Shown: positions 10,766-54,505 of the stretch, one piece after another | How positions within the stretch are numbered: the stretch's first letter is position 1 | How the letters are laid out: each line of letters begins with the position of its first letter | Source of the DNA: Nitrosospira multiformis | GTDB taxonomy: Bacteria; Pseudomonadota; Gammaproteobacteria; Burkholderiales; Nitrosomonadaceae | DNA: 64,000 bases | Direction: 5' to 3' | Assembly: GCA_017306155.1 (NCBI GenBank) | Contig: JAFKJB010000004.1 | Location: 62,001 to 126,000, forward strand | Notes under the pieces: model-generated | What the model was told of the DNA's origin: nothing | The model's database searches: none | What the model saw: the letters and a program-made list of their open reading frames with translations, nothing else | Position numbers and translations under genes: made by a program

Positions 10766-10901
10766 GTGCTTTCCCTCATGCGTCGCAAAGCGCAAAGCCT
10801 CTCAGCATCCGTTAACGCGAATAATACTTCCGCTATCCGCCCGTTAGTCAAGGTGATACTCTTGCAGCCTCCTTTGTATCGGAAAGATAGAGATATCTAA
10901 A

Positions 10902-17206: not shown

Positions 17207-18121
17207 ATGATTATAAATTCTTCAATTATCTTCAATAAAAAAAACTCGCCAGGCGAATCTCGTAGTCCGGTATTTGTCTGGTTGCCTGTCATCGCCGGAT
17301 TAATCGTACTTTATTTACCAAGCCTGGTCGATCTCTTTCGCGGCGTCTGGTCTACCGATCAGCAAGCTCATGGTCCGATTGTGCTGGGTATCGCCTGCTG
17401 GCTTATTTACCGGAAGTGGCCGGAAATGTGGCGTCAGAGCGAGGGGAAGCCCGCAGCTCCAGGTGCCGGTTGGCCAATCTTTATTTTTGGCCTGATGCTT
17501 TATGTAATCGGACGTTCCCAGGATATCCTGCTGTTCGAAATCGGCTCGGTAATCTGGCTGCTTGCCGCCATTGTTTTGCTTGTGCGTGGCTCGTACGCGC
17601 TCAAGGTCCAATGGTTTCCGCTCTTTTTCATGTTGTTCATGATTCCTCTCCCCTCCGCACTCGTCGATGCTCTGACAATGCCGATGAAAATGGCGGTTTC
17701 ATATGTGGCGGAAAACATTCTTTTCTGGTTCGACTATCCCATTGCGCGAACCGGAGTCATCCTGCAGATTGGGCAATACAAGCTGCTGGTAGCAGATGCG
17801 TGTGCAGGTCTTCATACTCTCTTTACACTCGAGGCGCTTGGCCTGCTCTATCTTAACCTGGTTCGTCACGATTCGTTATTCAGAAACATCGCATTGGCTA
17901 TCCTTATTGTTCCGATATCCTTTACCGCCAACGTTATCCGGGTAATGGTACTGACGCTGATTACCTACCATTTCGGCGACGAGGCGGGGCAAGGCTTCCT
18001 GCATGGCTTTGCCGGCATGGTGCTCTTCCTCAGTGCTCTGCTGCTGATCATTGGAGTCGATTCGCTATTACAAATGGCAGTCAGGTTGCATGTTAGAAGC
18101 AGTGCGTTCGGAGAGGCATGA
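17207..18121 (+). CDS. xrtB: Exosortase B (XrtB/EpsH)
   Basis: The 304-residue product is an integral membrane cysteine protease/transpeptidase with about eight helices. The catalytic triad is visible: Cys199 in VADACAGLHTLF, Arg245 in ANVIRVMVLT and His266 in GFLHGFAG. The LHTLFTLEALGLLYL signature fits XrtB. It is expected to recognise the C-terminal PEP-CTERM signal of exported proteins, such as those at 32284 and 37616, and process them at the inner membrane. The start at 17207 sits almost against the divergent VanZ-like gene. The stop overlaps epsI in an ATGATGATGA run. Confidence 0.93.
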   Translation: MIINSSIIFNKKNSPGESRSPVFVWLPVIAGLIVLYLPSLVDLFRGVWSTDQQAHGPIVLGIACWLIYRKWPEMWRQSEGKPAAPGAGWPIFIFGLMLYVIGRSQDILLFEIGSVIWLLAAIVLLVRGSYALKVQWFPLFFMLFMIPLPSALVDALTMPMKMAVSYVAENILFWFDYPIARTGVILQIGQYKLLVADACAGLHTLFTLEALGLLYLNLVRHDSLFRNIALAILIVPISFTANVIRVMVLTLITYHFGDEAGQGFLHGFAGMVLFLSALLLIIGVDSLLQMAVRLHVRSSAFGEA

Positions 18122-18801
18122 TGATGAATTCCTGGCCAAGAAATTGCCTGCTTCTGGTATTCATGCTAGCTGCCTCAGGCCTCGCACTGGCGCTGAAGCC
18201 TACACAAAAAATCGCCGACCAGGGTTCCGCAGTCAACCTCGAAAGAATAATACCAAAAGAATTTGGAGACTGGAGGGAAGAGCAGCATAACTTCGTACAA
18301 ATGGTCGATCCCCAGCAAAAGGAGCTGATCGAACGTATCTACACCCAGACGCTGAGCCGCACGTATGCGAATTCCGACGGTTATCGCATTATGCTGGCAA
18401 TAGCGTATGGCGATGATCAGAGAGACTCCATGCAAACGCATTATCCAGAGGTTTGTTACCCCGCCCAAGGTTTTAAACTGATATCAAGAGAAAAAGGAAG
18501 CATTACCTCATCAAGGGGTTCGATTCCCGTTGTGCAGCTCGTAACCTCGCTGGAAGAACAAAGAATCGAACCCGTGACGTATTGGGTGATGATAGGCGAT
18601 ATACCCATCACTCAAGGTTGGAAAAAAAAACTGGCGGAGATGCGTTATGGACTGAAGGGAATGATTCCCGACGGGCTTCTCTTCCGGGTCTCATCCGTCG
18701 ATCAGGATGACCGGCACGCTTTTGCAATGCACCAGGTATTTATTGACGATATCTTGTCCGCGATGCCGGTAGCGGAACGCAAGCGATTTGCAGGAACGTG
18801 A
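18118..18801 (+). CDS. epsI: Exosortase-associated protein EpsI
   Basis: The 227-residue product has an N-terminal membrane anchor (about 9-25) and the EpsI domain, including SRTYAN, the IAYGDDQ segment and QTHYPEVCYPAQGF (about 107-120) with the conserved Cys. EpsI is a periplasmic partner of exosortases, sometimes fused to them, with a suspected role in polymer or substrate processing. The start has three ATG codons in a row overlapping the xrtB stop, so the exact first codon is ambiguous. Confidence 0.9.
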   Translation: MMMNSWPRNCLLLVFMLAASGLALALKPTQKIADQGSAVNLERIIPKEFGDWREEQHNFVQMVDPQQKELIERIYTQTLSRTYANSDGYRIMLAIAYGDDQRDSMQTHYPEVCYPAQGFKLISREKGSITSSRGSIPVVQLVTSLEEQRIEPVTYWVMIGDIPITQGWKKKLAEMRYGLKGMIPDGLLFRVSSVDQDDRHAFAMHQVFIDDILSAMPVAERKRFAGT

Positions 18802-20380: not shown

Positions 20381-21859
20381 GTGCTGACAGTCGTCATTCT
20401 CTCGGTAGCTGCCTTCGCTTTTGCGCTGGGTTCAATCGCTGCAATAAGTGCTGTTGCAGGCGCAGCTTCCCGCTGGCCAAGTCAAATGTTCAGCTATCTG
20501 ATGTGGATGCTAGTGATAGCAGGTGTGGGCGGCATCCTCATCTCAGGGCGTGTTCTCAGAATAGAGGAAGAAACTTTGGTTGTGGGAGCAATGAGCGAAG
20601 CTGGGGGAACGATAATTGCCAAATTGCTTCTCTCCGCTGTAATTGGAGTTTCCATCGCTTTATGCGTGACATGGATATTGTTGTCGCGCAAAAGGAAGGC
20701 GAAGGATGACCGCTTCGAACAAAGGGGGCTGAATTCACCGGACGATATCATGATTGCGTTTATGGTGTTCTATGTCGCGTTCAGCATCCTGCCGCTCATC
20801 TTTGGAAAGAGTCATCAGTTTCACGTATCACTGTTTTATCCATTTTTCGTGTTCACCGCCTTGTTTCTATGGATGCGGCTGTCGAAGGTCGACCCGATCA
20901 TCGTGATCAAGCAGTGCCTGGGATTTATTGTATTGACCAGCCTGGTCGTGGCCGTACTGATTCCCCAACTTGCCGTACAGCCCAGCTATGTAGGGCTTAT
21001 CCCCGGATTCAATTCGCGACTTTGGGGATTGACAACAGGAGCAAACTCCCTTGGATCAGTTGCTGGCGTCCTTCTCGTGCTTGAGGCCGCCGAGCCGTCG
21101 GCGAGGAGATGGCTGAGTAATGGAATTTTTTTTACCGCTGCCGTTGCTCTGGTTTTGACTCAGTCCAAGACTTCCATTCTGGCAGCGTTCCTGGGGCTTT
21201 TGATCATTTTTGGATACCGGTTGGTGACCGGGTTTCAGGGAAAAAAGCTGGGCGGACGTAATGAAAATTCAATTTTAATTATTCTGATAGCGTTTTTTGT
21301 TTTATTTATCGCAGCAGCCAGTGCATGGGTCATGTTTTTTGATACAAGCGTCTTTACTTCACTTGAACGCAATCTGGATTCGCGGGCAGTCGGCAGATTG
21401 GCCACGGCGAGCGGACGAACCTGGATATGGGAAGTCGCTGTGCGAGGAGGGATGGAGAATCCTCTGTTCGGGCAGGGTTTAGGCTTCTGGAGCTTGGAGA
21501 ACCGGCTCCGATGGGGTCTGCTCGGTGCAGCACATGCTCATAATTTGTTTCTTGACGTGTTTGTCCGTTCCGGACTTGTGGGCTTGACCACACTATTGGT
21601 TTTTCTCTACTTTGTTTTTCGCTACTCCATACGCGCGACCCGATACACGCATGCAGGCAGCATTGCACTGGCAGTCATCTTTCTCGTTCGAGCGACGTTT
21701 GAAGTGCCACTCCAGCCCAACGCCATTCTAGGAGCGGAATCCATGGCAATGCTGGCCTACTTCCTCTATGTAATCGATAGAGGAGCCAAGCGGCGCGACC
21801 AGGCTCATGAGCCCGCCCCAAGGCCGCCACATTTTTTGAGGGCAGGAAATTTCCGATGA
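20381..21859 (+). CDS. O-antigen polymerase/ligase-like protein (Wzy-like)
   Basis: The 492-residue product has 10-12 membrane helices and the Wzy_C signature near its C-terminus: GQGLGFWSLENR, then AHAHNLFLDVFVRSGLVGL (about residues 363-408). It would join repeat units in the periplasm. The start is GTG at 20381, after a short gap from the flippase. The stop overlaps the next glycosyltransferase as ATGA. Polymerase is more likely than ligase because of the operon context, but sequence cannot separate the two. Confidence 0.83.
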   Translation: MLTVVILSVAAFAFALGSIAAISAVAGAASRWPSQMFSYLMWMLVIAGVGGILISGRVLRIEEETLVVGAMSEAGGTIIAKLLLSAVIGVSIALCVTWILLSRKRKAKDDRFEQRGLNSPDDIMIAFMVFYVAFSILPLIFGKSHQFHVSLFYPFFVFTALFLWMRLSKVDPIIVIKQCLGFIVLTSLVVAVLIPQLAVQPSYVGLIPGFNSRLWGLTTGANSLGSVAGVLLVLEAAEPSARRWLSNGIFFTAAVALVLTQSKTSILAAFLGLLIIFGYRLVTGFQGKKLGGRNENSILIILIAFFVLFIAAASAWVMFFDTSVFTSLERNLDSRAVGRLATASGRTWIWEVAVRGGMENPLFGQGLGFWSLENRLRWGLLGAAHAHNLFLDVFVRSGLVGLTTLLVFLYFVFRYSIRATRYTHAGSIALAVIFLVRATFEVPLQPNAILGAESMAMLAYFLYVIDRGAKRRDQAHEPAPRPPHFLRAGNFR

Positions 21860-22986: not shown

Positions 22987-23092
22987 GTTGGGCCATGCCA
23001 GCAGTAAAGTAGCGAGATTTGATGATGACTGTAACTCTCAAAGTTTAATCCAGGCAAGTACTTGATATTAATCATTCTATGGGGTGGCCGAA

Positions 23093-25480
23093 ATGATAAA
23101 ACTATCGTACTTTGATTACGGAAAAAGCCAGAAGCGTTGTGAGCTGGCGATACGGTGTTCGTTGCTAATGGTTCTGGTCATTGTGACAGCAGGTTGCACC
23201 ACCCCGGAAACGGAGCAGGGATTGAACGTCGCGCGCATCTCGCCTTCAAACAGGCAGACAGCTCCTGCTGACTGGATACAACCAAAGGACCCCAAGCTGG
23301 TGCAACCAAAGCCTGCCCAAGGCGCAGTTTCTATCCAGAATCCGCCAGGATTCAGTTGGAGTCGCCCACAACAGCAAGTGCAAGGCTATGAATTGCTCCT
23401 CCAGGGACCTGGTGACCAGATACATACATGGCAAACAACCCAGAACTGGTTCTTGCCATCATCCAGATTAGAGCCGGGTAAGTATGCCTGGAAAGTCAGA
23501 CCGACCGGTTCTCGTGGACAATGGAGCGATGCACGCAGTTTCTCTATTTCGCCTGATGCAATCGTGTTTGAAGTTCCTTCTGAGGAAATGATATTAAAAT
23601 ACATTAGAGCGCGCACTCGGCCACGTTCACTTTCCACTGCCGAAAAAGGTACCGATGCTCCGGCAGAGGCTGGTCAGTCTAAAAGGAGGGCCAAGCAGGC
23701 TTCCACTATCCAGCAATTAGAATCTCGGGTGAAGAGTGGCGCCAACAAGCCACCCGTGGACGAAAACTCCGTAGCGTTGGTGCCGCGTTCCAAGGACGAA
23801 AAAGCTTGGGTCGCTTCACTGACAACCATTCGATCCCGTACTTCTGATGAATCCAATCAATTACGACTTGCTTCCCTGCTTTGGCAACTTACTGGGCAGC
23901 GTTCGTACCTCGACGAAGCGAAGCGTCGAGGTAACGCGCTTGCTGCACTCGACCCTGGCGGATCCACCTCTCAAGCGAATCAGGATCAGGGTAATCGCGC
24001 CATTGCATGGGGACTCGCTATTGCCTACGATTGTTTGTCAGATGATCTATCGGCTGCCCAAAGAGCGGCATGGCTTGGCATCATCAAGAACCGGGTCGGG
24101 CAGATCTATTCTGATCTCAAGTCTTCGGGGTGGCGCCTGGCGCAAACACCATTCGATTCTCACGCGGGCACAAATATCGGCTATCTCGCCGCCATCTCGG
24201 CACTTATGATTGACAGCATACCTGAAGCTGAGCAGTGGTTCCGCGATTCATTTCGTTTTTACGTGCATTACCAAAGTCCCTGGGGAGGCGAGGATGGGGG
24301 GTTCGCAAACGGCACGGCATATGCCCAATATTCCATTGATGTTTTACTTGATCTGTGGGATGTAATTGCCGCCACAACGGGCGTCAATATCTATGAAAAG
24401 CCATGGTCCCAAGGTTTCCTCAAATTCATGGCATGCTTTAATCCACCGGGCAGTCCGACATTTGCCTTTGGGGACGGGGCTGAGAGAAAGCCGTGGGAGG
24501 AAGAACTTAAAGCATATGCAAATCGCTACGATAATGATCTCGCTCTTTGGTACTCCGCCAATCTGACTGGTTCTCCGCCCCCATTGTCCGAACTGACCAA
24601 CCCGGCGTCACATGCAAGGACAAATACATCCGGCGAGGCTCCGAAAGAAAACTCATGTGCGTTCAAGAGCGTCGGCTGGGTAGCCATGCACAGTCATTGG
24701 GCTGATCCCAAACGTACATCCATTTACTTTAAATCAAGTCCTTACGCGGCATTCGTCCATAGTCATGCCGATAACAATTCGTTTGTCGTGATTTCAGAAG
24801 GCGAGCCACTGCTGATCGACAGTGGGTATTATGACTGGTATGGTTCCCCTCACTGGAAAGGATGGTATTGGAGAACCAAGGCGCATAATGCCATTACGTT
24901 CGACGGAGGAAGAGGCCAGGCAGAGAAAACCGGCCCTGACCAGATAACGGCAGCGGGGAGACTGGTAGACTTCCACAGTAACGGGAAAGTCGACTTCGCA
25001 GAAGGAGATGCATTGGCGGCATACGAGGGTGAATTGCAGAAGGCCAGGAGGCGCCTGTGGTATTTGCGGGACGAAAATGTGCTCGTTATTCATGATTCCC
25101 TGAGTTCTGCGGTTGCACGGCAATTTGAATGGAACATTCATTCAGCCAATACATTCGAGGTCAAAGCTGCAACATCGATCGAGACGAAGAGTAAAACCTC
25201 CCGCGCGTGCATTGATGTGCTACAGCCAAAGGGGATCGAATTTCTTCAGAACAACAAGTTTGATTCTCCACCTGGAAAAATAACCGAAGGCAAAGCTCAA
25301 GGGATACCTGAAATGAAAGATCAGTGGCATGGGAAATTCCGGAACAAAGAGCGAGAGACTACCGTGGAGTTTCTGGTAGTGGTTGATGTGGGATGTAAGA
25401 ACACTCCGATAGAGAAAGGAAACTTCGAAAGCAGCCGGGACATTACGGTAGGTAAGGAGAGTATCCATATTGCCAAATAA
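23093..25480 (+). CDS. Heparinase II/III-like polysaccharide lyase, lipoprotein
   Basis: The 795-residue product from the ATG at 23093 (a GTG at 23084 is also possible) has a lipoprotein signal ending VTAGC with Cys at 35. An N-terminal Fn3-like sandwich follows (about 70-155), then an alpha/alpha toroid (about 230-480) and a heparinase II/III beta-sandwich with HSHADNNSFVV (about 558-568) and TKAHNAITFDG. It should cleave uronate-containing polysaccharide in the periplasm or at the outer membrane. Inside an exopolysaccharide locus it probably trims or recycles the cell's own polymer. No close match to characterised enzymes is claimed. Confidence 0.8.
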   Translation: MIKLSYFDYGKSQKRCELAIRCSLLMVLVIVTAGCTTPETEQGLNVARISPSNRQTAPADWIQPKDPKLVQPKPAQGAVSIQNPPGFSWSRPQQQVQGYELLLQGPGDQIHTWQTTQNWFLPSSRLEPGKYAWKVRPTGSRGQWSDARSFSISPDAIVFEVPSEEMILKYIRARTRPRSLSTAEKGTDAPAEAGQSKRRAKQASTIQQLESRVKSGANKPPVDENSVALVPRSKDEKAWVASLTTIRSRTSDESNQLRLASLLWQLTGQRSYLDEAKRRGNALAALDPGGSTSQANQDQGNRAIAWGLAIAYDCLSDDLSAAQRAAWLGIIKNRVGQIYSDLKSSGWRLAQTPFDSHAGTNIGYLAAISALMIDSIPEAEQWFRDSFRFYVHYQSPWGGEDGGFANGTAYAQYSIDVLLDLWDVIAATTGVNIYEKPWSQGFLKFMACFNPPGSPTFAFGDGAERKPWEEELKAYANRYDNDLALWYSANLTGSPPPLSELTNPASHARTNTSGEAPKENSCAFKSVGWVAMHSHWADPKRTSIYFKSSPYAAFVHSHADNNSFVVISEGEPLLIDSGYYDWYGSPHWKGWYWRTKAHNAITFDGGRGQAEKTGPDQITAAGRLVDFHSNGKVDFAEGDALAAYEGELQKARRRLWYLRDENVLVIHDSLSSAVARQFEWNIHSANTFEVKAATSIETKSKTSRACIDVLQPKGIEFLQNNKFDSPPGKITEGKAQGIPEMKDQWHGKFRNKERETTVEFLVVVDVGCKNTPIEKGNFESSRDITVGKESIHIAK

Positions 25481-25738
25481 AGCAAGCAATGTCGCTACTG
25501 TTTTATCCCTGAGATAGATATCAAGTCTATAGAAATGAAATTGCGGCAAATAGCACTGACCTTTCTCCATGGATACATGCCCTATATTCTATTCGGCGCC
25601 ACCTTACTGTTGTAAATACACCAGACTTTGAGTAACGGAAAACCTTCTTAAATAGAGAATTTGGTAAGACCCTTATGCTGGAGAAATAGTGCCCTAATCG
25701 AGAGGCAGGCGGTGAGCAATCCAAAATGGAGGGACAAA

Positions 25739-26587
25739 ATGCAAAATACCGGTAGAATTTGCGTGGCTGATCCTAATCATCGCTTAAGTCAAAAAAGATT
25801 TGCCATAAATTCCAGAGACATATTTATTTGTCCTGATTGTGGCTGCATCATGGCTGATGTTGACTTCGACCATGGTCAATATGAGTCTGGAGAGTACTAT
25901 ACTATGCAGCATAAAACAGTACAAAGTATCGAAGAAGTATGGGGATTCAGATGGCGCTATATTCTAGATCAGATTTTGAAAATTAATGGGTGCTCATCTT
26001 TGCTCGACGTTGGTGCAGGCAATGGATATTTTGTGGCTTTAGCTTCAAGAGAATTTTCTTTCGATGCAAGCGGATTAGAAATATCGCAAGAAGAAGTCCA
26101 ATTCGCTGAGAACGTCTTAAACATCAGGCTAATTAGAGAAGATCTTACTCAACATAATCTCGACTATGACGTAGTCACTTGCTTGAATGTACTGGAACAC
26201 GTAGTAGATCCTCAACTGTTTTTATCCCATCTGGTAAACCGGGTTAAGCCTGGTGGGCTTCTAGTTATTACTACACCTAATCCCGCTTGTATTCATCGAA
26301 AGGTAAAGGGATTAAAAAACTGGAATATGATAGCGCCTCCCCATCATATTAATCTTTTTACAAAAGAATCCCTGTACATCCTCTTGATGCGCTACGGCTT
26401 AGTACAACTTGATTACCAAACGCTAAGCACTTATGTGAACTTTGTAAGAGGGTTTGACACTGAGAATCTCCTTCTCCGACGGTTATTTTTCAATTTACTA
26501 AAGACATTCGACCTCGGTGCTGATCATTTTTTCATTGTTAAAAAGCCAGCTCAATGTGAGCGGAAAATTAAATTCTATTTGCAATAA
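25739..26587 (+). CDS. Class I SAM-dependent methyltransferase with Cys-rich N-terminus
   Basis: The 282-residue product has a possible zinc ribbon (C-V-A-D...CPDCGC, about residues 8-40). A Rossmann methyltransferase domain follows, with LLDVGAGNGYF (about 84-94), CLNVLEHVVDP (about 141-151) and a KPGGLLVITTPNP strand. This architecture is common in glycan-locus methyltransferases. I chose the ATG at 25739 because a GGAGGG site lies 8 bases upstream; the frame opens at a TTG at 25661. The gene is visibly more AT-rich than its neighbours, suggesting recent transfer. Confidence 0.8.
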   Translation: MQNTGRICVADPNHRLSQKRFAINSRDIFICPDCGCIMADVDFDHGQYESGEYYTMQHKTVQSIEEVWGFRWRYILDQILKINGCSSLLDVGAGNGYFVALASREFSFDASGLEISQEEVQFAENVLNIRLIREDLTQHNLDYDVVTCLNVLEHVVDPQLFLSHLVNRVKPGGLLVITTPNPACIHRKVKGLKNWNMIAPPHHINLFTKESLYILLMRYGLVQLDYQTLSTYVNFVRGFDTENLLLRRLFFNLLKTFDLGADHFFIVKKPAQCERKIKFYLQ

Positions 26588-31398: not shown

Positions 31399-32265
31399 AT
31401 GGAACGCCTGTTGTTTGGTGACAATCAGTTTTTTGGGGTCAACCATATGTCAGAAGAGAAAGCGCGGACCCAGATGATGCGCTTTCAGGAACTGGCAGCG
31501 GTCATCGACGTACTGGATAACGCCTATGATGAAGGCGTCACGTCTTTCATGTGCACTACCCATGATCGCATCGCGATGGTCTGTGATCACATGCGATCGA
31601 ATCCCCAGCGTTACAAGGACTTTCAGTTTTTGCCATGCATGCCCTACGCCCACAAATATGCAAATGCGGTTACCGAGGATGGGATGGTGGGTGCACTGAA
31701 GCGCTTCCTTCCAGAAGAAGGCATCGTGAATGCGGCGCTGCGCGGGGGAATGTCCCTTGCAAGAAAGGATATCGAAGGCATTACCACTTTACTGGTGGAT
31801 GCGGAAATGAAGATGTTTGCAGGTTTGAATACTCCTGTAATCTTTCTTCAAAACGTTGTGGTCGATCTGCTGTTGGGTCTCGACTTCAATGCGGCTTTCC
31901 GTATTTTTGCCGACCACATCAAGTCTCGCTATGACGCCGAACCCGGCTTCATTACGATGAACATGCCGAAGTTGCTGGATGCGCTCGAGGAGGTGGGGAT
32001 CGAGAACCCGATTGTGTGTTCCAACATCAACAAGATCGGGTTTCGCATGTGTGGCGGTTTCGAGGCTTATGAGCGGGCGCTGAATGAGAAGAAGTTCCGG
32101 GCCATTGCGATGTCGGTGTTCGCGTCTGGGGCGGTTCCAGCCAGGGAGGCAATCGAGTGGGTCTGCAAGCAGCCGAATATACAGGCCATCGTTTTCGGCG
32201 CTTCGAGCAAGACAAATATCCGGAATACAAAATCCTTGGTAGAGGAATTCTGGCGTATCAATTAG
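31399..32265 (+). CDS. Conserved hypothetical protein, possible TIM-barrel (aldo/keto-like)
   Basis: The 288-residue soluble product starts MERLLFGDNQFFGVNHMSEE. It has alternating strands and helices, with ATP- or NAD-site motifs absent. A late segment, IQAIVFGASSKTNIRNTKSL (about 262-281), resembles the phosphate-binding end of aldo/keto reductases (GASSxxxI). An aldo/keto-reductase-like or lyase-like barrel is my best guess. It lies 45 bases after the Gfo/Idh gene and 19 before the lyase gene, so it probably serves the same sugar pathway. Confidence 0.6.
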   Translation: MERLLFGDNQFFGVNHMSEEKARTQMMRFQELAAVIDVLDNAYDEGVTSFMCTTHDRIAMVCDHMRSNPQRYKDFQFLPCMPYAHKYANAVTEDGMVGALKRFLPEEGIVNAALRGGMSLARKDIEGITTLLVDAEMKMFAGLNTPVIFLQNVVVDLLLGLDFNAAFRIFADHIKSRYDAEPGFITMNMPKLLDALEEVGIENPIVCSNINKIGFRMCGGFEAYERALNEKKFRAIAMSVFASGAVPAREAIEWVCKQPNIQAIVFGASSKTNIRNTKSLVEEFWRIN

Positions 32266-32283: not shown

Positions 32284-33450
32284 ATGAACAGGGTTACAGT
32301 GTTTGTTTTATGTTTTGCTTTAACGTTTCCTTTTAGTTTCGCTCGTGCTGATATAGTTTTCGATGGAAGATTAAGTAAGGGGGATTTTTCCGGTTATCGG
32401 GCGCTCGAAGCCAATGGAACGCGTTCCGGTGGTGCTTTGACTCCGAACGGTATTCCATCCCGGCTGGACCGGGTTCGTGATCCAGCGGGTTCCGGTCAGT
32501 GGGTGATGCGCGCAACTCATGTTCATGGGGATCTAGCCATATATGGAGGTTATCGCTCAGAATTAAGCACCTTCCAGGATCCCATTGGCTCGGAACGGTG
32601 GTACTCCTGGGGCTACTATCTTCCAAAAACGTTTGCCACAGCGAAAAATGATGTCGTTATAGCGCAAATCCATAACACCCCTGATATTAGGGAAAGTCAT
32701 AGTCGGAATCCTACTCTTGCAGTGCTGGTTCAGGGTGAGAGGATAAAGCTCATAAATGCATTCGACTACGACAGGATTACCTCGCCAGCAGGTACTCGCT
32801 CAATCGCCGGGGCTGATTATGAACGCCGGGAATTGACCTCATGGGATCTTCAGGCCGGACGCTGGACGTTTTTAGACTTGCACGTGAAGTGGGCTACGAA
32901 CAATACAGGTTTTCTCGAATTATGGAAAGATGGGACGCTGCTTTTCCAAGAGAAAAATCACATCAATACTTTCAATGACGAACGAGGCGTATGGTTCAAG
33001 AGCGGGCTATATGATTGGTCACCCAGTCCGGAATCTATTTCCACATATTCCTCTGGAGTGATCATCAGGGACGAAAAAGAAATGTCTCGGTCCATGCTAA
33101 TGTCTCTCGTGCCTGAATCAAGCATTTCTCCGGATACACTTTCGCGCTGGAGCGTGGGGCAGGACTTAAGCGGCGTGATAGGGGATATTTTTGCTCAGCG
33201 GGCAGCCCAGGCAGGAGATACTCTTGCTCATCGGGTGGCTCAGGCAGAGAAAAACCCGGTCTACGGACATAATGAAACCCTTCATGATGTCGTCGCTGGA
33301 GACGGAAAGGAAATGTTTCAGGCTACGTCAGTGTCCCTCGTGCCTGAGCCAAGCATTTATTTGATGATGCTGGCCGGTGTCGCAAACATCGGTTTCTTCG
33401 CGTATAAGCGTCGGAGGATATTGCTAACAGAGAGCCCTATGCCAGCATGA
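32284..33450 (+). CDS. Heparin-lyase-like polysaccharide lyase with PEP-CTERM tail
   Basis: The 388-residue product has a Sec signal peptide ending near ARA. A beta-jelly-roll region of the heparin lyase I / PL-like family covers about residues 25-265 (YGGYRSELS, SWGYYLPKTF, WTFLDLHVKW, FKSGLYDW). The C-terminal sorting signal is VPEPSIYLMMLAGVANIGFF plus KRRR. It should be exported, cleave a surface polysaccharide and be handled by exosortase. The 100 residues before the tail contain a second, degenerate copy of the motif (VPESSIS, near 278). The stop overlaps wecB as ATGA. Confidence 0.75.
   Translation: MNRVTVFVLCFALTFPFSFARADIVFDGRLSKGDFSGYRALEANGTRSGGALTPNGIPSRLDRVRDPAGSGQWVMRATHVHGDLAIYGGYRSELSTFQDPIGSERWYSWGYYLPKTFATAKNDVVIAQIHNTPDIRESHSRNPTLAVLVQGERIKLINAFDYDRITSPAGTRSIAGADYERRELTSWDLQAGRWTFLDLHVKWATNNTGFLELWKDGTLLFQEKNHINTFNDERGVWFKSGLYDWSPSPESISTYSSGVIIRDEKEMSRSMLMSLVPESSISPDTLSRWSVGQDLSGVIGDIFAQRAAQAGDTLAHRVAQAEKNPVYGHNETLHDVVAGDGKEMFQATSVSLVPEPSIYLMMLAGVANIGFFAYKRRRILLTESPMPA
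33070..33360 (+). repeat. Internal duplication of the PEP-CTERM motif region
   Basis: Bases 33070-33129 and 33301-33360 are two copies of a 60-base unit, identical at 46 positions by my count. They encode DEKEMSRSMLMSLVPESSIS and DGKEMFQATSVSLVPEPSIY. Only the second keeps the VPEP motif and is followed by the hydrophobic helix and basic tail. The first is now part of the linker. Confidence 0.7.
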
Positions 33451-34562
33451 AAAAAATTTATCTTGTTGCCGGAGCTCGTCCCAATTTCATGAAAATCGCG
33501 CCGGTTGTGCGCGCTTTGCAGACTCGCCAGGGTCTGGAATTTAAAATCATCCATACCGGTCAGCATTATGACAGGGAGATGAATGACGTCTTTTTTGAAG
33601 AACTTGGCATCCCCCAGCCGGACATCTTCATGGCGGCTGGTGGCGGAACTCACGCGCAACAGACAGCCAGGATCATGATGGCCTTTGAAGAGTTTTGTGA
33701 AGCCGATCCCCCGGATGCGGTACTGGTGGTAGGAGATGTGAACTCGACGTTGGCCTGCTCCATTGTGGCCAAAAAGTTGCATGTACCCGTGGCTCACGTA
33801 GAGGCCGGCTTAAGGAGTGGCGACATCACGATGCCGGAGGAAGTCAACCGTATCGTTACCGATAGCATTTCAGACTGGTTTTTCGTGACGGAGCCCAGCG
33901 GAATCGATCACTTGAAGCGGGAAGGAAAGCGAGATTCCGCAATTCATTACGTCGGGCACGTAATGATCGATAATTTGTTGTACCAGCTCAAAAAGCTGGA
34001 GGATTTCGATATTTCCAGTCCTGAAAAAAGTCCGTTCAAGACGAGGCATACGGCCAACGGAAGCCGTTATGGCGTCGTGACTCTGCACCGGCCGAGCAAT
34101 GTGGATAACGTCGAGATGATAACTCGCCTGTGCGGTGCGCTGCGGGAGATTGCCATTGAACTGCCTTTGATCTTTCCGGTCCATCCTCGTACGAGAGGTA
34201 ATCTCGAGAAATTTGGCATTGAGCTGGGGCCGAATATCACGCTGCTAGGACCGCAGGCATACATGCCTTTTCTTAATCTATGGAAAGATGCCGCGGTGGT
34301 GCTGACTGACAGCGGAGGGTTGCAGGAAGAAACCACTGCTCTCGGCGTGCCCTGCGTTACCCTTCGCGACAATACCGAACGTCCTGTCACTGTTGAAGAA
34401 GGATCCAACGTATTGGCAGGTACCGATCCGGCACGCATCATTGACGAGGTACGAAAGATATTACGTGGGGAAGGCAAGCGCAGCCGACGCCCCCATCTAT
34501 GGGATGGAAAAGCGGCTGAACGGATAGTGGATATACTGGTGAAGGAAGTAAATCAGGCGTAA
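33447..34562 (+). CDS. wecB: UDP-N-acetylglucosamine 2-epimerase (non-hydrolysing)
   Basis: The 371-residue product starts KKIYLVAGARPNFMKIAPVV. It contains HTGQHYD, HVEAGLRSGDITMPEEVNR (about 112-130) and the donor-binding DSGGLQEE (about 287-294). It interconverts UDP-GlcNAc and UDP-ManNAc in the cytoplasm, feeding ManNAc-type sugars into the polymer. The start overlaps the lyase stop (ATGA), tying precursor supply to the exported lyase. No partner WecC is beside it, so the ManNAc may be used unoxidised or modified by the upstream oxidoreductase. Confidence 0.92.
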   Translation: MKKIYLVAGARPNFMKIAPVVRALQTRQGLEFKIIHTGQHYDREMNDVFFEELGIPQPDIFMAAGGGTHAQQTARIMMAFEEFCEADPPDAVLVVGDVNSTLACSIVAKKLHVPVAHVEAGLRSGDITMPEEVNRIVTDSISDWFFVTEPSGIDHLKREGKRDSAIHYVGHVMIDNLLYQLKKLEDFDISSPEKSPFKTRHTANGSRYGVVTLHRPSNVDNVEMITRLCGALREIAIELPLIFPVHPRTRGNLEKFGIELGPNITLLGPQAYMPFLNLWKDAAVVLTDSGGLQEETTALGVPCVTLRDNTERPVTVEEGSNVLAGTDPARIIDEVRKILRGEGKRSRRPHLWDGKAAERIVDILVKEVNQA

Positions 34563-34818: not shown

Positions 34819-35874
34819 ATGATTCTTGTCACCGGTGGCGCAGGCTATATAGGTTCACATACCTGTGTGGAACTGCTGAATGCAGGTCTTGATGTCACCG
34901 TATTCGACAATTTTTGTAACAGCCATCCCGAGGCATTAAGGCGGGTTGAGCATATCACCGGAAAAAAGCTCCGCGTCGTGCAAGGCGATTGCCGTGACCG
35001 CTCCTCCGTGAGCAATGCTCTCCGGGAGAACCAGGCAATCGCTGTCATCCACTTCGCCGGCCTTAAAGCCGTGGGAGAGTCAGTGCAGCAACCGCTGGCT
35101 TATTACGATAATAACGTTGTCGGTACCCTTCGTTTGCTGGAGGCGATGTCGGAGTGCGGAGTGAAAACTCTGGTATTCAGTTCTTCCGCTACTGTTTATG
35201 GTGAGCCCAGATCCCTGCCATTAACGGAAGATCATCCGCTTTCTGCCACCAATCCGTATGGTCGAAGCAAGCTGATGATCGAAGAAATCCTGCGTGACCT
35301 GTACCACAGTGATTCTTCCTGGCGTTGCGCCATCCTCAGGTATTTCAATCCCGTTGGAGCGCATTCCAGCGGTTTGATTGGCGAAGATCCCAGAGGAACT
35401 CCTGATAATCTCATGCCCTTTGTGGCCCAGGTTGCCATTGGCCGCAGGGAGTATCTGAATGTGTGGGGCAATGATTATCCTACGCCGGATGGAACGGGTG
35501 TGCGCGATTATATTCACGTCGTGGATCTGGCATCAGGCCATCTCAAAGCCCTCGAGGCCCTGGAGAATCCTGGAGTGCGCAATGCAGAAGCCATTAAGAG
35601 GCAAGGAGGATGTCTGACGGTAAACCTTGGAACCGGGACGGGCTATAGTGTGCTGGAAATGATAAGGGCTTTTGAAAAGGCGAGTACTCATAAGGTACCC
35701 CACAGAATTGCTTCACGCCGGCCGGGTGATATCGCCTCATGCTATGCCGATCCTGCGCTTGCATCCGATCTGCTCGGCTGGCGAGCAAAACGGGGACTGG
35801 AAGAAATGTGCGTTGACACGTGGCGCTGGCAGAGCCAGAATCCCAAGGGATATGGAGGCGAGAATTCACACTAG
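34819..35874 (+). CDS. galE: UDP-glucose 4-epimerase
   Basis: The 351-residue short-chain dehydrogenase fold enzyme has the NAD motif VTGGAGYIGSHTC at the start, SSATVYG (about 124-130) and the catalytic YGRSK (about 151-155). Length and motifs match GalE. It makes UDP-galactose for the polymer and for lipopolysaccharide. It lies between wecB and the mannose gene, with its own upstream gap. Confidence 0.93.
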   Translation: MILVTGGAGYIGSHTCVELLNAGLDVTVFDNFCNSHPEALRRVEHITGKKLRVVQGDCRDRSSVSNALRENQAIAVIHFAGLKAVGESVQQPLAYYDNNVVGTLRLLEAMSECGVKTLVFSSSATVYGEPRSLPLTEDHPLSATNPYGRSKLMIEEILRDLYHSDSSWRCAILRYFNPVGAHSSGLIGEDPRGTPDNLMPFVAQVAIGRREYLNVWGNDYPTPDGTGVRDYIHVVDLASGHLKALEALENPGVRNAEAIKRQGGCLTVNLGTGTGYSVLEMIRAFEKASTHKVPHRIASRRPGDIASCYADPALASDLLGWRAKRGLEEMCVDTWRWQSQNPKGYGGENSH

Positions 35875-37615: not shown

Positions 37616-38179
37616 ATGAATACTTTTTTGAAGCGAGCTGTTGCTGTTGCAATTCTGGCCGGCGTGGGTGCTGGCGCCAATGCTGCACCTACGAATGATC
37701 AGCTTGGTACGGTGTCTTATAATGTGCCAACCACGTTCAGCGGAAGTGTAGTGCCTGCTGGAGATTTCAATGATGTCTTTTCCTTCAGTCTGCCTGCCAA
37801 CAGCGGTTCCGGCTACAGCGTCATTAATTTTCCAGTGGATATCCCAAATGTTGGTTCCTTCAACACAATCCTCTCCACGATGTCACTGATTTCCGACCCG
37901 GATGGAGTCCGGAATAGCGGTGATGAGCATCTCCTGGCCTCGGCTGTACTCGGAGGATCAAATACATCCGACGCTCTCACTTTGCATTGGGGGCCGAACG
38001 CAGGCGGTAATTTTGATTTGAATATCACAGGAATGACCAACGGTACCCTGGGCGGTCTTTACAGCGGATCGATCCAGGTGAGTCCGGTTCCGGAGCCAGA
38101 AACCTACGCGATGCTTCTCGCAGGTCTGGGCCTGATGGGCGCTGTCGTGCGTCGCCGGAGCCAGCGTAAAAATTCCTGA
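37616..38179 (+). CDS. FxDxF-type PEP-CTERM surface protein
   Basis: The 187-residue secreted protein has a signal peptide ending near ANAAPT and a central beta-rich domain containing FNDVFSFSL (the FxDxF motif, about 51-59). The sorting tail is VPEPETYAMLLAGLGLMGAV followed by RRRSQRKN. It is a predicted exosortase substrate and probably a surface or matrix protein. A strong AAGGAGG site precedes the ATG, and a strong terminator follows, so it is likely well expressed as a single-gene unit. Confidence 0.85.
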   Translation: MNTFLKRAVAVAILAGVGAGANAAPTNDQLGTVSYNVPTTFSGSVVPAGDFNDVFSFSLPANSGSGYSVINFPVDIPNVGSFNTILSTMSLISDPDGVRNSGDEHLLASAVLGGSNTSDALTLHWGPNAGGNFDLNITGMTNGTLGGLYSGSIQVSPVPEPETYAMLLAGLGLMGAVVRRRSQRKNS

Positions 38180-44677: not shown

Positions 44678-45961
44678 ATGATGAGTGTGGTGGCGGTGGT
44701 TGGGCTAGGCTATGTGGGATTACCTTTAGCGGTGGAGTTCGGAAAAAAAAGGAAGACCATTGGTTACGATCTTTCAAGCAGCAAGGTAGAAAGTTACAAG
44801 CAATGCATCGATCCGACCGGTGAGGTTTCCTCCGATGACCTGAAAGCCGCAGAGCAGCTTCATGTCACTAACGACCCGGCTGAGTTGTCACAAGCGGATT
44901 ATATTGTCGTGGCGGTTCCAACACCTGTAGACGCAGCTCATCAGCCGGATTTTCGGCCCCTCGCGAGCGCGAGCGAAACCGTGGGGAAACATATGAAGCG
45001 GGGGGCAATCGTTATTTACGAATCCACCGTTTACCCGGGAGCAACCGAGGAAGTCTGTATTCCTGTCCTTGAGAAACATTCCGGCATGAAATGGAAAAAC
45101 GATTTTCATGTCGGCTTCTCGCCCGAACGGATCAATCCGGGTGACAAGCAGCATACCCTCACAAAAATTCTCAAGGTCGTCTCTGGAGACGATGAAGATA
45201 CACTGGAAAAAATTGCGGCGCTTTACGAGAGCATAATTACCGCTGGCGTGCATCGCGCCTCCAGCATCAAGGTGGCGGAAGCAGCCAAGGTGATCGAAAA
45301 TACTCAAAGAGACCTCAATATCGCTTTGATGAATGAACTGGCGATTATTTTCGACAAACTGGATATCGATACACTGGAAGTGCTGCAGGCGGCCGGCACG
45401 AAATGGAATTTTCTACCTTTTCGCCCGGGGCTGGTTGGCGGTCATTGTATCGGGGTCGATCCCTACTACCTTACCCATAAGGCGGAAATGGTGGGTTATA
45501 TCCCCCAGGTCATCCTCGCGGGGCGGCGTATCAATGACAGTATGGCCAAATTCGTGGCGGAACAAACGATCAAGCATATCATCAAGGCCGATATCAACGT
45601 CCGGAGTGCGCGCGTGAATGTTCTCGGCCTGGCCTTCAAGGAAAACTGCCCTGATCTCAGGAATTCCAAGGTTGCCGATCTGATCAATGAACTCGAAAGC
45701 TATGGGATAGAGATTCACGTCCATGATCCTGTCGCCAGTTCCGAAGAAGCCCGCCACGAATACGGTGTGGAACTTGAATCCTGGGAGAACCTTCCGCGCG
45801 CGGACGCAATGATCGTTGCCGTTGCCCATCGCCAGTTCACTGAGATGCCCTTGACCCAATTTCAGACCAAAATCACGGACAAAGGATGTTTCATAGATGT
45901 GAAATCCCAGTTCGATCCTGCCGCGTTGCGAGAGGCTGGCTTAAACGTGTGGAGACTGTGA
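44678..45961 (+). CDS. tviB: UDP-N-acetyl-hexosamine 6-dehydrogenase (TviB/WbpA type)
   Basis: The 427-residue nucleotide-sugar dehydrogenase has VVAVVGLGYVGLPLAVEFG, the ESTVYPGATEE segment (about 111-121), RDLNIALMNE and the active-site GGHCIGVDPYYLT with Cys near 259. The pattern fits the Vi-antigen TviB / WbpA branch, which oxidises UDP-GlcNAc (or GalNAc) to the uronic acid. Two ATG codons start the frame; the second has better ribosome-site spacing. The next gene completes the pathway. Confidence 0.9.
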   Translation: MMSVVAVVGLGYVGLPLAVEFGKKRKTIGYDLSSSKVESYKQCIDPTGEVSSDDLKAAEQLHVTNDPAELSQADYIVVAVPTPVDAAHQPDFRPLASASETVGKHMKRGAIVIYESTVYPGATEEVCIPVLEKHSGMKWKNDFHVGFSPERINPGDKQHTLTKILKVVSGDDEDTLEKIAALYESIITAGVHRASSIKVAEAAKVIENTQRDLNIALMNELAIIFDKLDIDTLEVLQAAGTKWNFLPFRPGLVGGHCIGVDPYYLTHKAEMVGYIPQVILAGRRINDSMAKFVAEQTIKHIIKADINVRSARVNVLGLAFKENCPDLRNSKVADLINELESYGIEIHVHDPVASSEEARHEYGVELESWENLPRADAMIVAVAHRQFTEMPLTQFQTKITDKGCFIDVKSQFDPAALREAGLNVWRL

Positions 45962-45978: not shown

Positions 45979-47031
45979 ATGGCTGCTTACCCAAAATCGC
46001 TGCGGCATCTGGAGGACCGCCAATACTGCTGGCTGGTCACGGGCGTTGCGGGCTTCATCGGGTCCAATCTGCTGGAGGCCTTGCTCAAGCGTAACCAGAA
46101 AGTAATCGGACTGGATAATTTTTCCACCGGCTATCAGCGGAATCTCGAGCAGGTACGGGATCTGGTCGGAGAAAAGGCCTGGGGTAATTTCAGCTTTACA
46201 GAGGGTGATATCTGTCAACTGGAAACCTGCACGGATGCATGCCGTGGCGTGGATTTCGTTTTGCACCAGGCAGCATTGGGTTCCGTGCCGCGTTCCATTC
46301 AAGATCCCATTCGAACCAACGAAGCCAATATTTCCGGATTCCTCAACATGCTGGTCGCGTCAAGGGACGCGCAAGTGAGGCGCTTCATCTACGCCGCCTC
46401 CAGTTCCACCTATGGCGACCACCCCGGCCTGCCAAAAGTGGAAGCGGTCATTGGACGTCCCCTCTCGCCCTATGCTGTCACCAAATATGTGAACGAACTC
46501 TACGCCGACGTGTTCGCGCGTTGCTATGGCCTGGACTCCGTCGGGCTGCGCTATTTCAACGTATTCGGTCCAAGACAGGACCCCAATGGCGCTTATGCCG
46601 CGGTTATTCCCCAGTGGGTTTCGGCATTGATCAGAAATCAGACGCTGTACATCAATGGGGATGGCGAAACCAGCCGGGATTTCTGTTATATCGACAATGT
46701 AGTGCAAGCCAATCTTCTCGCTGCTCTTAGTGACAACAAGGGAGCGGTGAACCAGATTTACAATGTGGCAGTGAATGAACGCACCAGCCTGAATCAACTG
46801 TATGGCATGATGCGCGAGCTGTTGCTGGAGAGGTTTCCGGAGCTGGAGAATCATCGACCGACGTACGTCGACTTTCGCAAGGGCGATGTCCGGCATTCCC
46901 AGGCGGATATTACGAAAGCCGCCAAATTACTTGGTTTTGAGCCGTCCCACCGCATCGATGAAGGACTCAGGCAGGCAATGAGCTGGTACATCGCGCATCT
47001 TGTCCCTGCACAGGAGGCAAGTGGCGTCTAA
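45979..47031 (+). CDS. tviC: UDP-N-acetylglucosaminuronate/GlcNAc 4-epimerase (TviC/WbpP type)
   Basis: The 350-residue extended SDR enzyme starts its Rossmann motif at [16 protein letters not shown] (about residues 21-36). It carries [14 protein letters not shown] (about 138-151) and the YAVTKYVNE Tyr/Lys pair (about 165-173), typical of WbpP/TviC. With TviB it makes UDP-N-acetyl-galactosaminuronate. It lies 18 bases after tviB. Confidence 0.9.
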
Positions 47032-51587: not shown

Positions 51588-52709
51588 ATGGCAACTTTAA
51601 AAGTTGTAGTGATTCTGCCGACCTACAACGAGCGGGATAACATTGGCAGAATGATTGATGCGCTACAGGTTCACGCTCGGGAATTTCTTCATGACATGCA
51701 CATTCTTGTGGTGGATGACGATTCACCTGACGGCACGGCAGAGGTGGTTCGGGCGAAGCAGGCTGCAAATCCGAATGTGCATTTGCTGATGGGAAAGAAG
51801 GCAGGGCTTGGCGCCGCCTATATCCGCGGAATGATTCATGCGATGGATGAGCTTCATGCTGATGTCGTGTTCGAGATGGATGCTGATTTCTCGCACAAAC
51901 CCGAGGATGTGCCTCGGCTTATGGCGGCGCTCGAGGAGGGCGCGGATTTTGTGATTGGCAGCCGTTATGTGAAGGGCGGCTCCATTCCAAAGGAATGGGG
52001 GATTCTGCGCCGCATGAATTCCCTGGGCGGTAATGTCGTTGCACGCTACGTTGCCGGGATATACAAAATTCGAGACTGCACAGCAGGCTTCAGGGCGATC
52101 AGAACTTCTCTCCTCAAAAAAGTCACCTTTGACGATCTTCGTGTTCAGGGATACGCCTTCCAGGTCGCACTGCTGCACAAGGCTGTATCTCTCGGTGCAG
52201 TCATAAAGGAAATTCCCGTGGACTTTGTAGATCGCACCAAGGGCGAGTCGAAGCTCGGAATCTCGGACATCATCGAGTTTGTCCTGAATGCCTGGTGGAT
52301 ACGTCTCCACAGCTCAAAGACCTTTATCAAGTTCGCCATAGTAGGATTGTCCGGCGTGGTTGTGAATCTTGGCGTGTTTACACTGCTTCTCCAGGCAAAT
52401 GTAAATAAATATATCGCCTCTCCTATCTCGATCGAAATATCGATTATCACGAACTTTCTGCTGAATAACTACTGGACCTTTCGCTGGCGCAAGTCTCAAG
52501 ACCATATCCGTGTCAAGGGGCTGAAGTTCAACATGGTGTCTCTCGTATCCCTGGGGGTAAGTTATTCCACTTTTGTAGTGCTATCCATTCTGTTCCCTGA
52601 GGCCTCGCCGGAAATTCACCAGCTTGTCGGGATTGCCCCCGCCATGCTCATAAATTACTTCCTGAATTCTTATTGGACATTCAAGAATACGCCTGTGCCC
52701 AAGGATTGA
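51588..52709 (+). CDS. GT2 dolichol-phosphate-mannose synthase-like transferase fused to GtrA domain
   Basis: The 373-residue product has a GT2 catalytic domain (about 1-235) with VVILPTYNERDNIGRMI, VVDDDSPDGT (about 44-53) and EMDADFSHKPED (about 98-109). A GtrA-like four-helix membrane domain follows (about 240-368, FIKFAIVGLSGVVVNLGVF). It probably makes a polyprenyl-phosphate-linked sugar and helps flip it. The following GT39-like gene could use that sugar outside the inner membrane. Confidence 0.9.
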   Translation: MATLKVVVILPTYNERDNIGRMIDALQVHAREFLHDMHILVVDDDSPDGTAEVVRAKQAANPNVHLLMGKKAGLGAAYIRGMIHAMDELHADVVFEMDADFSHKPEDVPRLMAALEEGADFVIGSRYVKGGSIPKEWGILRRMNSLGGNVVARYVAGIYKIRDCTAGFRAIRTSLLKKVTFDDLRVQGYAFQVALLHKAVSLGAVIKEIPVDFVDRTKGESKLGISDIIEFVLNAWWIRLHSSKTFIKFAIVGLSGVVVNLGVFTLLLQANVNKYIASPISIEISIITNFLLNNYWTFRWRKSQDHIRVKGLKFNMVSLVSLGVSYSTFVVLSILFPEASPEIHQLVGIAPAMLINYFLNSYWTFKNTPVPKD

Positions 52710-52880
52710 GTAAGCTGGAAGGAGCAGCATTTCACGGCTGCTTTCAATTGCTTTCGGCTCTTTACTCGACAGAACGTCATTAAACTGAGCGTAAGCTGGC
52801 AGCAGTCTGGATCGGCTTTGTCAATATATCGGATTTACCCTGTGTTAAAAGGTATGCGCTAATTTTCCGAATTCCCAGCC

Positions 52881-54230: not shown

Positions 54231-54505
54231 CCGCGACACCCTCATGGGTTTCACATCAGCGATGCCTAATGGCGCTCAGTCTGGGTATTCTGACCACAGC
54301 GATCGGAGTCGCAGGCATTTATCCTGGAAAGGTATTCAACCAAATGCAGAATCGGCCAACTTATATCGTGAAGGATGTTTGCCGCTGATGATCAACCTGC
54401 AACCGATGTACAGTATCCGGCACGGCTTCCTGTACACTCGTGACTGGAGTTTCACGTAAATCTTCCGTTAAGCCATGCTGGACCTGACTCCACTGCAAAA
54501 AATTG

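What the first reader, a model, noticed from the sequence alone, without database searches (positions are those of the whole stretch)
32284..33450. Exosortase-sorted polysaccharide lyase inside the polysaccharide locus
A heparin-lyase-like domain is joined to a standard PEP-CTERM tail and translationally coupled to wecB. An enzyme that can cut the polymer and is itself handled by the exosortase would let the cell trim its matrix at the surface. I know no characterised system with this exact arrangement.
Basis: partly seen in the sequence, partly recalled or inferred. Interest (0 to 1): 0.7.

Follow-up and report, generated by a model that had tools for sequence, protein, structure and literature searches.

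The report
Exosortase-tagged lyase in swappable polysaccharide cassette
A soil ammonia-oxidising bacterium carries, inside its slime-making gene cluster, a secreted enzyme that probably cuts polysaccharide and bears a tag for surface sorting, while nearly all relatives that lack it carry an unrelated secreted protein in the same gene neighbourhood.

Summary
ORF 32284-33450 has a signal peptide, a PF14099 lyase domain (E 6e-47) and a PEP-CTERM tag, and overlaps wecB by 4 nt in an XrtB polysaccharide locus of a Nitrosospira. Two predicted models match PL20 glucuronan lyase first. Arg91, Gln128 and Tyr243 are kept in 11 of 11 orthologues; His130 is Gln in 3 of 11. The lyase domain is under purifying selection, the tag region less clearly. 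New: 11 of 23 Nitrosospira genomes have the tagged lyase; 11 others have a secreted beta-helix/CBM protein, near wecB in the 10 where that can be seen; none has both, one has neither. An rpoB tree needs about 5 switches, and one close pair suggests exchange of the block epsF-wecB. Most likely it is a secreted, exosortase-processed depolymerase for the cell's own uronate-containing polymer, like AlgL, PslG or WceF in role, unusual in its sorting tag. Activity, substrate, processing and place are inferred. New variant of a known kind; moderate interest.

The parts
32284..33450 (+). lyase-PEP gene: signal peptide, PF14099 beta-jelly-roll lyase domain, spacer, PEP-CTERM tail
32284..32352 (+). signal peptide, residues 1-23 (judged by eye; cleavage site not predicted by a tool)
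   Evidence: sequence; N-terminal helix 2-22 in the model
32377..33048 (+). PF14099 domain, residues 32-255; R91, Q128, H130, K239, Y243 in the putative active site
   Evidence: fold
33070..33127 (+). decayed duplicate of the region before the PEP-CTERM motif (reads ...SLVPESSI...)
33340..33414 (+). PEP-CTERM sorting signal, residues 353-377 (VPEP, hydrophobic stretch, basic end)
33447..34562 (+). wecB, UDP-GlcNAc 2-epimerase; ATGA overlap with the lyase stop
31399..32265 (+). unassigned gene directly upstream (reads ...FGDNQFFGVNHMSEEK...)
   Evidence: no Pfam match, no NCBIfam match over cut-off
17207..18121 (+). XrtB exosortase
18118..18801 (+). EpsI, type B
20381..21859 (+). Wzy_C-type polymerase/ligase
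23084..25480 (+). second lyase-like gene, heparinase II/III family, nearest solved chain oligo alginate lyase (3a0o, E 6.7e-45)
34819..35874 (+). galE, first gene downstream of the block that differs in G101
37616..38179 (+). small FxDxF-type PEP-CTERM protein
44678..45961 (+). TviB-like nucleotide-sugar dehydrogenase (uronate donor)
45979..47031 (+). TviC-like nucleotide-sugar epimerase

Best explanation
A secreted beta-jelly-roll polysaccharide lyase that is made together with the sugar-supply enzyme WecB. It crosses the inner membrane by its signal peptide and is held there by the PEP-CTERM helix. An exosortase (XrtB most likely) cuts it at the PEP motif and passes it outward, where it cleaves uronate linkages of the cell's own XrtB-locus polysaccharide by beta-elimination, setting chain length or loosening the matrix. 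The gene belongs to an exchangeable cassette (about epsF to wecB); in most relatives without it a secreted beta-helix/CBM protein lies in the same neighbourhood. Shown: gene anatomy, fold match, residue conservation, purifying selection on the domain, co-location, mutual exclusion, repeated switching. Inferred: catalytic activity, substrate, exosortase cleavage, final location, biological role, and that the beta-helix protein is a depolymerase.
For: Domain and tag over curated cut-offs. Best fold match PL20 2zzj for both models, then PL13 and PL7 lyases. R91, Q128, K239, Y243 in 11 of 11 orthologues. By the alignments, with numbering that I counted, Q128, Y243 and R91 stand against Q91, Y200 and H53 of 2zzj, and H130 and Y243 against H151 and Y357 of heparin lyase I; the heparin lyase segments are weak (whole-sequence E 0.002), and the active-site role of these residues is recalled, helped by a PDB title naming H151A. 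Domain dN/dS 0.14-0.30 in 6 of 6 pairs. Orthologue directly upstream of wecB in 11 of 11 genomes that have it, overlap in 10 of 11. XrtB over cut-off in 23 of 23 genomes of the genus. Nucleotide-sugar dehydrogenase in the locus and over cut-off in 22 of 23 genomes. Tagged lyase in 11 of 23, beta-helix/CBM protein in 11 of 23, both in 0, neither in 1 (P 8.9e-6 if kinship is ignored); 5 changes for either label on the rpoB tree, one clade of lyase genomes rejected, p-AU 8.5e-7. Against the sister genome G101, epsA-epsE are 85-95% identical in DNA, epsF, epsG, xrtB, epsI and wecB 71-79%, the genes between epsI and wecB unmatched, and galE-tviC 90-95% except the small PEP-CTERM gene.
Against: His130 is Gln in 3 of 11 orthologues, so activity may be weak or lost there. 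The tag region is not clearly constrained: dN/dS from residue 346 on is 0.47, 1.49, 0.70 and 1.15 in the 4 pairs measured, over 31-43 codons, and one orthologue (G094) has SEP for PEP. The lyase occurs with several different glycosyltransferase sets, so by genes it is not specific to one repeat unit. The dehydrogenase is there with or without the lyase. XrtA is a second possible processor. Lyase and wecB distances agree only weakly (rho 0.36). Model quality is modest and the jelly-roll is shared with non-lyases. The cassette boundary rests on one pair of genomes.
Confidence: 0.5

Rival explanations
1. [quoted passage not shown] surface delivery is secondary or does not occur.
For: A lyase in the synthesis operon that clears the periplasm is the AlgL case (abstract of PMC8829089). 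The wecB overlap would tie its amount to synthesis. The tag region is only loosely constrained.
Against: A clearance enzyme needs only a signal peptide; untagged PF14099 paralogues with a hydrophobic N-terminus lie in the same locus in G109 and G102, beside the tagged one, so the tag looks like a distinct purpose.
Confidence: 0.22
2. A matrix-binding protein with a lyase fold but little activity: it binds the polymer and, through exosortase handling, links it to the cell surface, as proposed for other PEP-CTERM proteins.
For: His130 is Gln in 3 of 11; PEP-CTERM proteins are reported to keep polysaccharide cell-bound (passages of PMC9850573 and PMC12188702).
Against: R91, Q128, K239 and Y243 kept in 11 of 11; purifying selection on the domain. 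2zzj itself has no His at the 130 position (alignment), so its loss need not abolish activity.
Confidence: 0.18
3. A scavenging or weapon enzyme that attacks polymers of other organisms or debris; its place in the locus is incidental.
For: Lyases of this fold commonly degrade foreign polymers (general knowledge). The lyase stays while the glycosyltransferases around it change.
Against: Conserved place next to wecB in 11 of 11; absent with the rest of the block in the sister genome G101; alternation with another secreted protein.
Confidence: 0.07

Closest known systems
PL20 endo-beta-1,4-glucuronan lyase of Trichoderma reesei (2zzj)
   Same: best sequence match among solved chains (E 4.9e-8 single, 9e-14 by profile) and best fold match; Gln and Tyr aligned
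   Different: fungal; about 20% identity; TM-score 0.55 for the domain with rmsd 8.0; His53 stands against Arg91 and His130 has no counterpart
PL13 heparin lyase I (3imn, 3in9) and PL7 alginate lyases
   Same: next best fold matches; H151 and Y357 of heparin lyase I stand against H130 and Y243
   Different: weak sequence match (E 0.002 and worse); chains of about 370 aa for heparin lyase I
AlgL of the alginate operon, PslG of the psl cluster, WceF of the stewartan cluster
   Same: a polymer-cutting enzyme encoded inside the polymer's own synthesis locus (AlgL and WceF: abstracts; PslG: search listing only)
   Different: other folds (AlgL an alpha-toroid, WceF a beta-helix by the outlines seen; PslG recalled); none carries a PEP-CTERM tag as far as I recall
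PEP-CTERM/exosortase systems (Haft 2006; PepA of Aquincola; CrtB of Nostoc)
   Same: exosortase, EpsI and a PEP-CTERM tail in a polysaccharide locus
   Different: in the passages read no PEP-CTERM protein is said to cut polysaccharide; most are said to be in single-gene operons, this one is within an operon

Membership tests
Pfam PF14099 (Polysacc_lyase) | score over the curated cut-off over most of the model | tested here: met
   160.6 against 29.9 bits, model positions 3-205 of 210
PL20 (CAZy) | sequence family of glucuronan lyases, with its catalytic His, Gln, Tyr (roles recalled) | tested here: inconclusive
   nearest solved relative, about 20% identity; Gln and Tyr kept, His53 is Arg; CAZy itself was not available
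polysaccharide lyase (function) | beta-elimination on a uronate polymer | not testable with these tools
   needs purified protein and polymer
PEP-CTERM protein | N-terminal signal peptide plus C-terminal PEP motif, hydrophobic stretch and basic end | tested here: met
   tag over cut-off; tails of 11 orthologues viewed, 10 keep PEP and one has SEP; signal peptide judged by eye
XrtB substrate | processing lost without XrtB | not testable with these tools
   XrtB in the same locus, but XrtA is also in the genome
XrtB exopolysaccharide locus | epsA, epsL, epsD-G, xrtB and epsI type B together | tested here: met
   each over its NCBIfam cut-off
AlgL-type clearance enzyme | needed to clear periplasmic polymer | not testable with these tools
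   genetic test needed

The most novel reading that the evidence does not exclude
Nitrosospira polysaccharide loci have an exchangeable, serotype-like cassette with two depolymerase positions: a mid-cassette one filled by unrelated glycanases (heparinase II/III, TIM-barrel glycosidases of two sizes, untagged PF14099) and one before wecB filled by either an exosortase-tagged jelly-roll lyase or an untagged beta-helix/CBM enzyme, never both. Each polymer type would travel with its own trimming enzymes, one of them delivered by the exosortase route; phages of the genus that carry the same lyase fold could drive the switching.
Probability: 0.35. Interest if true: 0.68.

Novelty: new variant of a known kind. 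Interest (0 to 1): 0.5.

Why it matters
The job of exosortases is still poorly defined by experiment. A substrate with a measurable enzyme activity, encoded in the exosortase's own polysaccharide locus, would give a direct readout: one can ask where the activity is, and how polymer size changes, with and without the exosortase. The lyase/beta-helix alternation gives a natural comparison between related strains and suggests that these ammonia oxidisers switch surface polymers by cassette exchange, as other bacteria switch capsule types.

Tried and rejected
Phage origin of this gene: a viral-contig scan with the orthologue alignment confirmed no relative (17 pattern matches, 0 confirmed).

Tagged relatives outside the genus: the orthologue alignment found, in 399 genomes of the order, the own genome and three genomes of one other genus. 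PF14099 matched in 16 of 398 genomes of the phylum and 11 of 399 of the order, own genome included in both (E up to 1e-8, samples drawn evenly and overlapping in part). 37 loci were looked at: one is the own genome's and three are second views of the same places, leaving 33 places. In 19 an ORF was found with my profile and in the other 14 by the frame of the match. In 31 of 33 the end was read and none has a PEP-CTERM tail; 2 run off the stretch held. Other phyla were not searched.

In the family, 12 of 125 genomes match the protein, all in the genus; one of the 12 (G112) has only an untagged relative. A link between lyase presence and the dehydrogenase: none seen. Agreement of distances among the 11 lyase genomes: lyase-wecB rho 0.36, lyase-rpoB 0.59, wecB-rpoB 0.82, so lyase and wecB need not always move together. 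The wecB tree is poorly resolved (8 of 19 inner branches starred; the label needs 4 changes, starred branches force only 1; 22 genomes, G106 left out). Reading the extra tail segment in other frames gave stops.

Literature searches (open-licence full texts only, so absence from print is not shown): PEP-CTERM + polysaccharide lyase + exosortase, 3 papers, none opened; Nitrosospira + exosortase + exopolysaccharide, 0; glucuronan lyase + PL20 + crystal structure, 7, none opened; PEP-CTERM + heparinase + exopolysaccharide, 0; PEP-CTERM + exosortase + flocculation, 5, two opened as passages; PslG/AlgL/BcsZ, 23, two outlines with abstracts opened; Nitrosospira + PEP-CTERM, 2, none opened; PEP-CTERM + depolymerase, 3, one opened as passages, on another matter; XrtB + PEP-CTERM, 0; exosortase + alginate lyase, 0. 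Haft 2006 was opened by identifier, passages only.

Full report
What is there. The ORF at 32284-33450 is real and as described: signal peptide (by eye), PF14099 domain (residues 32-255), PEP-CTERM tail (353-377), and a 4-nt ATGA overlap with wecB. It sits in an XrtB-type polysaccharide locus (epsA, wcaJ-type transferase, epsL, epsD, epsE, epsF, epsG, xrtB, epsI type B), followed by galE, manC and a small PEP-CTERM protein, rhamnose genes and a TviB/TviC-like pair for uronate sugars. The six named records that encode a relative are all Nitrosospira (6 of 6). The genome has 32 TIGR02595 matches at E up to 1, 29 of them over the cut-off, and two PF14099 genes over the cut-off, this one and a weaker one in a prophage.

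Fold and active site. By sequence the only solved hit of the single protein is glucuronan lyase 2zzj; a profile adds heparin lyase I and one alginate lyase weakly. The full-length model is of modest quality (mean pLDDT 55.2, pTM 0.55), the domain alone somewhat better (64.9, 0.70). Both give 2zzj as best Foldseek match, then heparin lyase I; alginate lyases follow. The domain's TM-score to 2zzj is 0.55 with rmsd 8.0, and the jelly-roll is shared by many carbohydrate-binding proteins, including toxin binding domains lower in both lists, so the fold alone does not prove a lyase; the family match and residues carry more weight. R91, Q128, K239 and Y243 are the same in 11 of 11 orthologues, H130 in 8 of 11. 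dN/dS of residues 24-262 is 0.14-0.30 in 6 of 6 pairs; the signal peptide and the last 31-43 codons give scattered values up to 2.1 and 1.49.

Conservation of place. In the family, 12 of 125 genomes match the protein, all in the genus; 11 have the tagged orthologue. All 23 Nitrosospira genomes have wecB (in G106 in two pieces). Of 22 wecB loci read, the 11 with the lyase have it directly upstream, 10 with a 4-nt overlap; the other 11 have other upstream contexts. Between strains the genes upstream of the lyase differ widely, while wecB, galE, manC and a small PEP-CTERM gene follow in all 10 relatives' loci, at times with genes inserted.

Alternation. Reading loci without the lyase (10 loci) showed in 7 a secreted protein of about 1050-1190 aa on the opposite strand upstream of wecB. 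Three were scanned: all three have right-handed beta-helix and CBM_4_9 domains; one was compared with solved chains, nearest a parallel beta-helix protein. None of 8 tails viewed is a PEP-CTERM. At E up to 1e-20 the protein is in 11 of 23 genomes, exactly the lyase-free ones except G112, and in no other genus of the family (11 of 125). It lies 0.8-5.7 kb from wecB in the 10 genomes where both are on one contig, in some with other genes between; in G106 they are on different contigs. On an rpoB tree of 23 genomes (G108 partial; 11 of 20 inner branches starred) either label needs 5 changes, and the lyase genomes as one clade are rejected (p-AU 8.5e-7). Labels are still somewhat clustered (15 of 500 shuffles as low). 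The window's genome is sister to G101, a beta-helix genome. Between these two, DNA identity falls from 85-95% (epsA-epsE) to 71-79% (epsF, epsG, xrtB, epsI, wecB; epsI over 376 of 684 nt) with no match for the genes between, and returns to 90-95% from galE to tviC, apart from the small PEP-CTERM gene; three genes further down (51588-55723) had no match in the stretch fetched. Exchange of the block is the simplest reading; it rests on one pair. Lyase and wecB distances agree only weakly, so finer exchange inside the block is likely.

A second enzyme-like gene. ORFs of 200 aa or more were filtered by a simple hydropathy rule for secretion, leaving out those that match other window genes. 22 of 23 genomes show such a carbohydrate-active gene: heparinase II/III in 5 (G000, G097, G098, G099, G107), a TIM-barrel glycosidase of about 370-500 aa with weak GH10/GH39/GH42 matches in 9 (G096, G100, G101, G103-G106, G111, G115), a 740-757 aa GH42-like one in 5 (G094, G095, G110, G113, G114), and untagged PF14099 in 3 (G102, G109, G112). 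In 19 it lies between xrtB and wecB on one contig; in G106 and G107 it is on the contig of xrtB; in G112 on a separate small contig; in G108, fragmented, none was seen. Families were scanned for 3 of 5, 7 of 9 and 3 of 5 and the rest assigned by similarity. One TIM-barrel representative matches GH39 xylosidases (best E 1.5e-5) and PslG (1.6e-4) among 43 solved chains.

How it most likely works. I favour a secreted, exosortase-processed depolymerase for the cell's own uronate polymer, encoded in an exchangeable cassette. The genes show structure, conservation and exchange; they do not show activity, substrate, cleavage by XrtB or final place. AlgL-like clearance and a binding-only role are the main rivals. 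Papers seen: outlines with abstracts for AlgL and WceF; passages of Haft 2006, the Aquincola PepA paper and the Nostoc CrtB paper; PslG papers only as a search listing.

Novelty. Enzymes that cut a polymer within its synthesis locus are known, and PEP-CTERM proteins in such loci are known. The searches listed no paper whose title or abstract start describes the combination or the alternation; most listed papers were not opened and the library is limited. I rate it a new variant of a known kind.

Noticed in passing
L031:11431-12168 (own genome, contig C15); L033:8837-9685 and 10769-11590 (G109): PF14099-fold genes near a phage major head protein (phrog_334) in apparent prophages; by eye the own-genome copy lacks the QxH and Tyr motifs and the L033 8837-9685 copy keeps them.
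   Followed up: partly
window 33067-33297: Extra tail segment (66-77 residues) with a decayed second copy of the pre-tag region, in 4 of 11 orthologues (own genome, G097, G098, G099), lengthening the linker between enzyme and sorting tag.
   Followed up: partly
window 23084-25480: A second lyase-like gene, heparinase II/III family, near oligo alginate lyase 3a0o.
   Followed up: partly
L097:1314-2927 (own genome, contig C10): A second exosortase, XrtA with fused EpsI domain (TIGR03109 352.9 against 208 bits); a second, weaker exosortase match was seen in all 23 genomes of the genus.
   Followed up: partly
L057/L058 (G106:C45:20346-21448): wecB of G106 is matched in two overlapping pieces, a frame break or an assembly error.
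   Followed up: no
window 31399-32265: A gene without a Pfam match or an NCBIfam match over its cut-off lies upstream of the lyase in 5 of 11 lyase loci (window); in G112 it lies directly upstream of wecB instead.
   Followed up: no
window 25661-26587: A methyltransferase gene of markedly lower G+C (0.397; the other 27 genes listed 0.489-0.546), perhaps a recent arrival.
   Followed up: no
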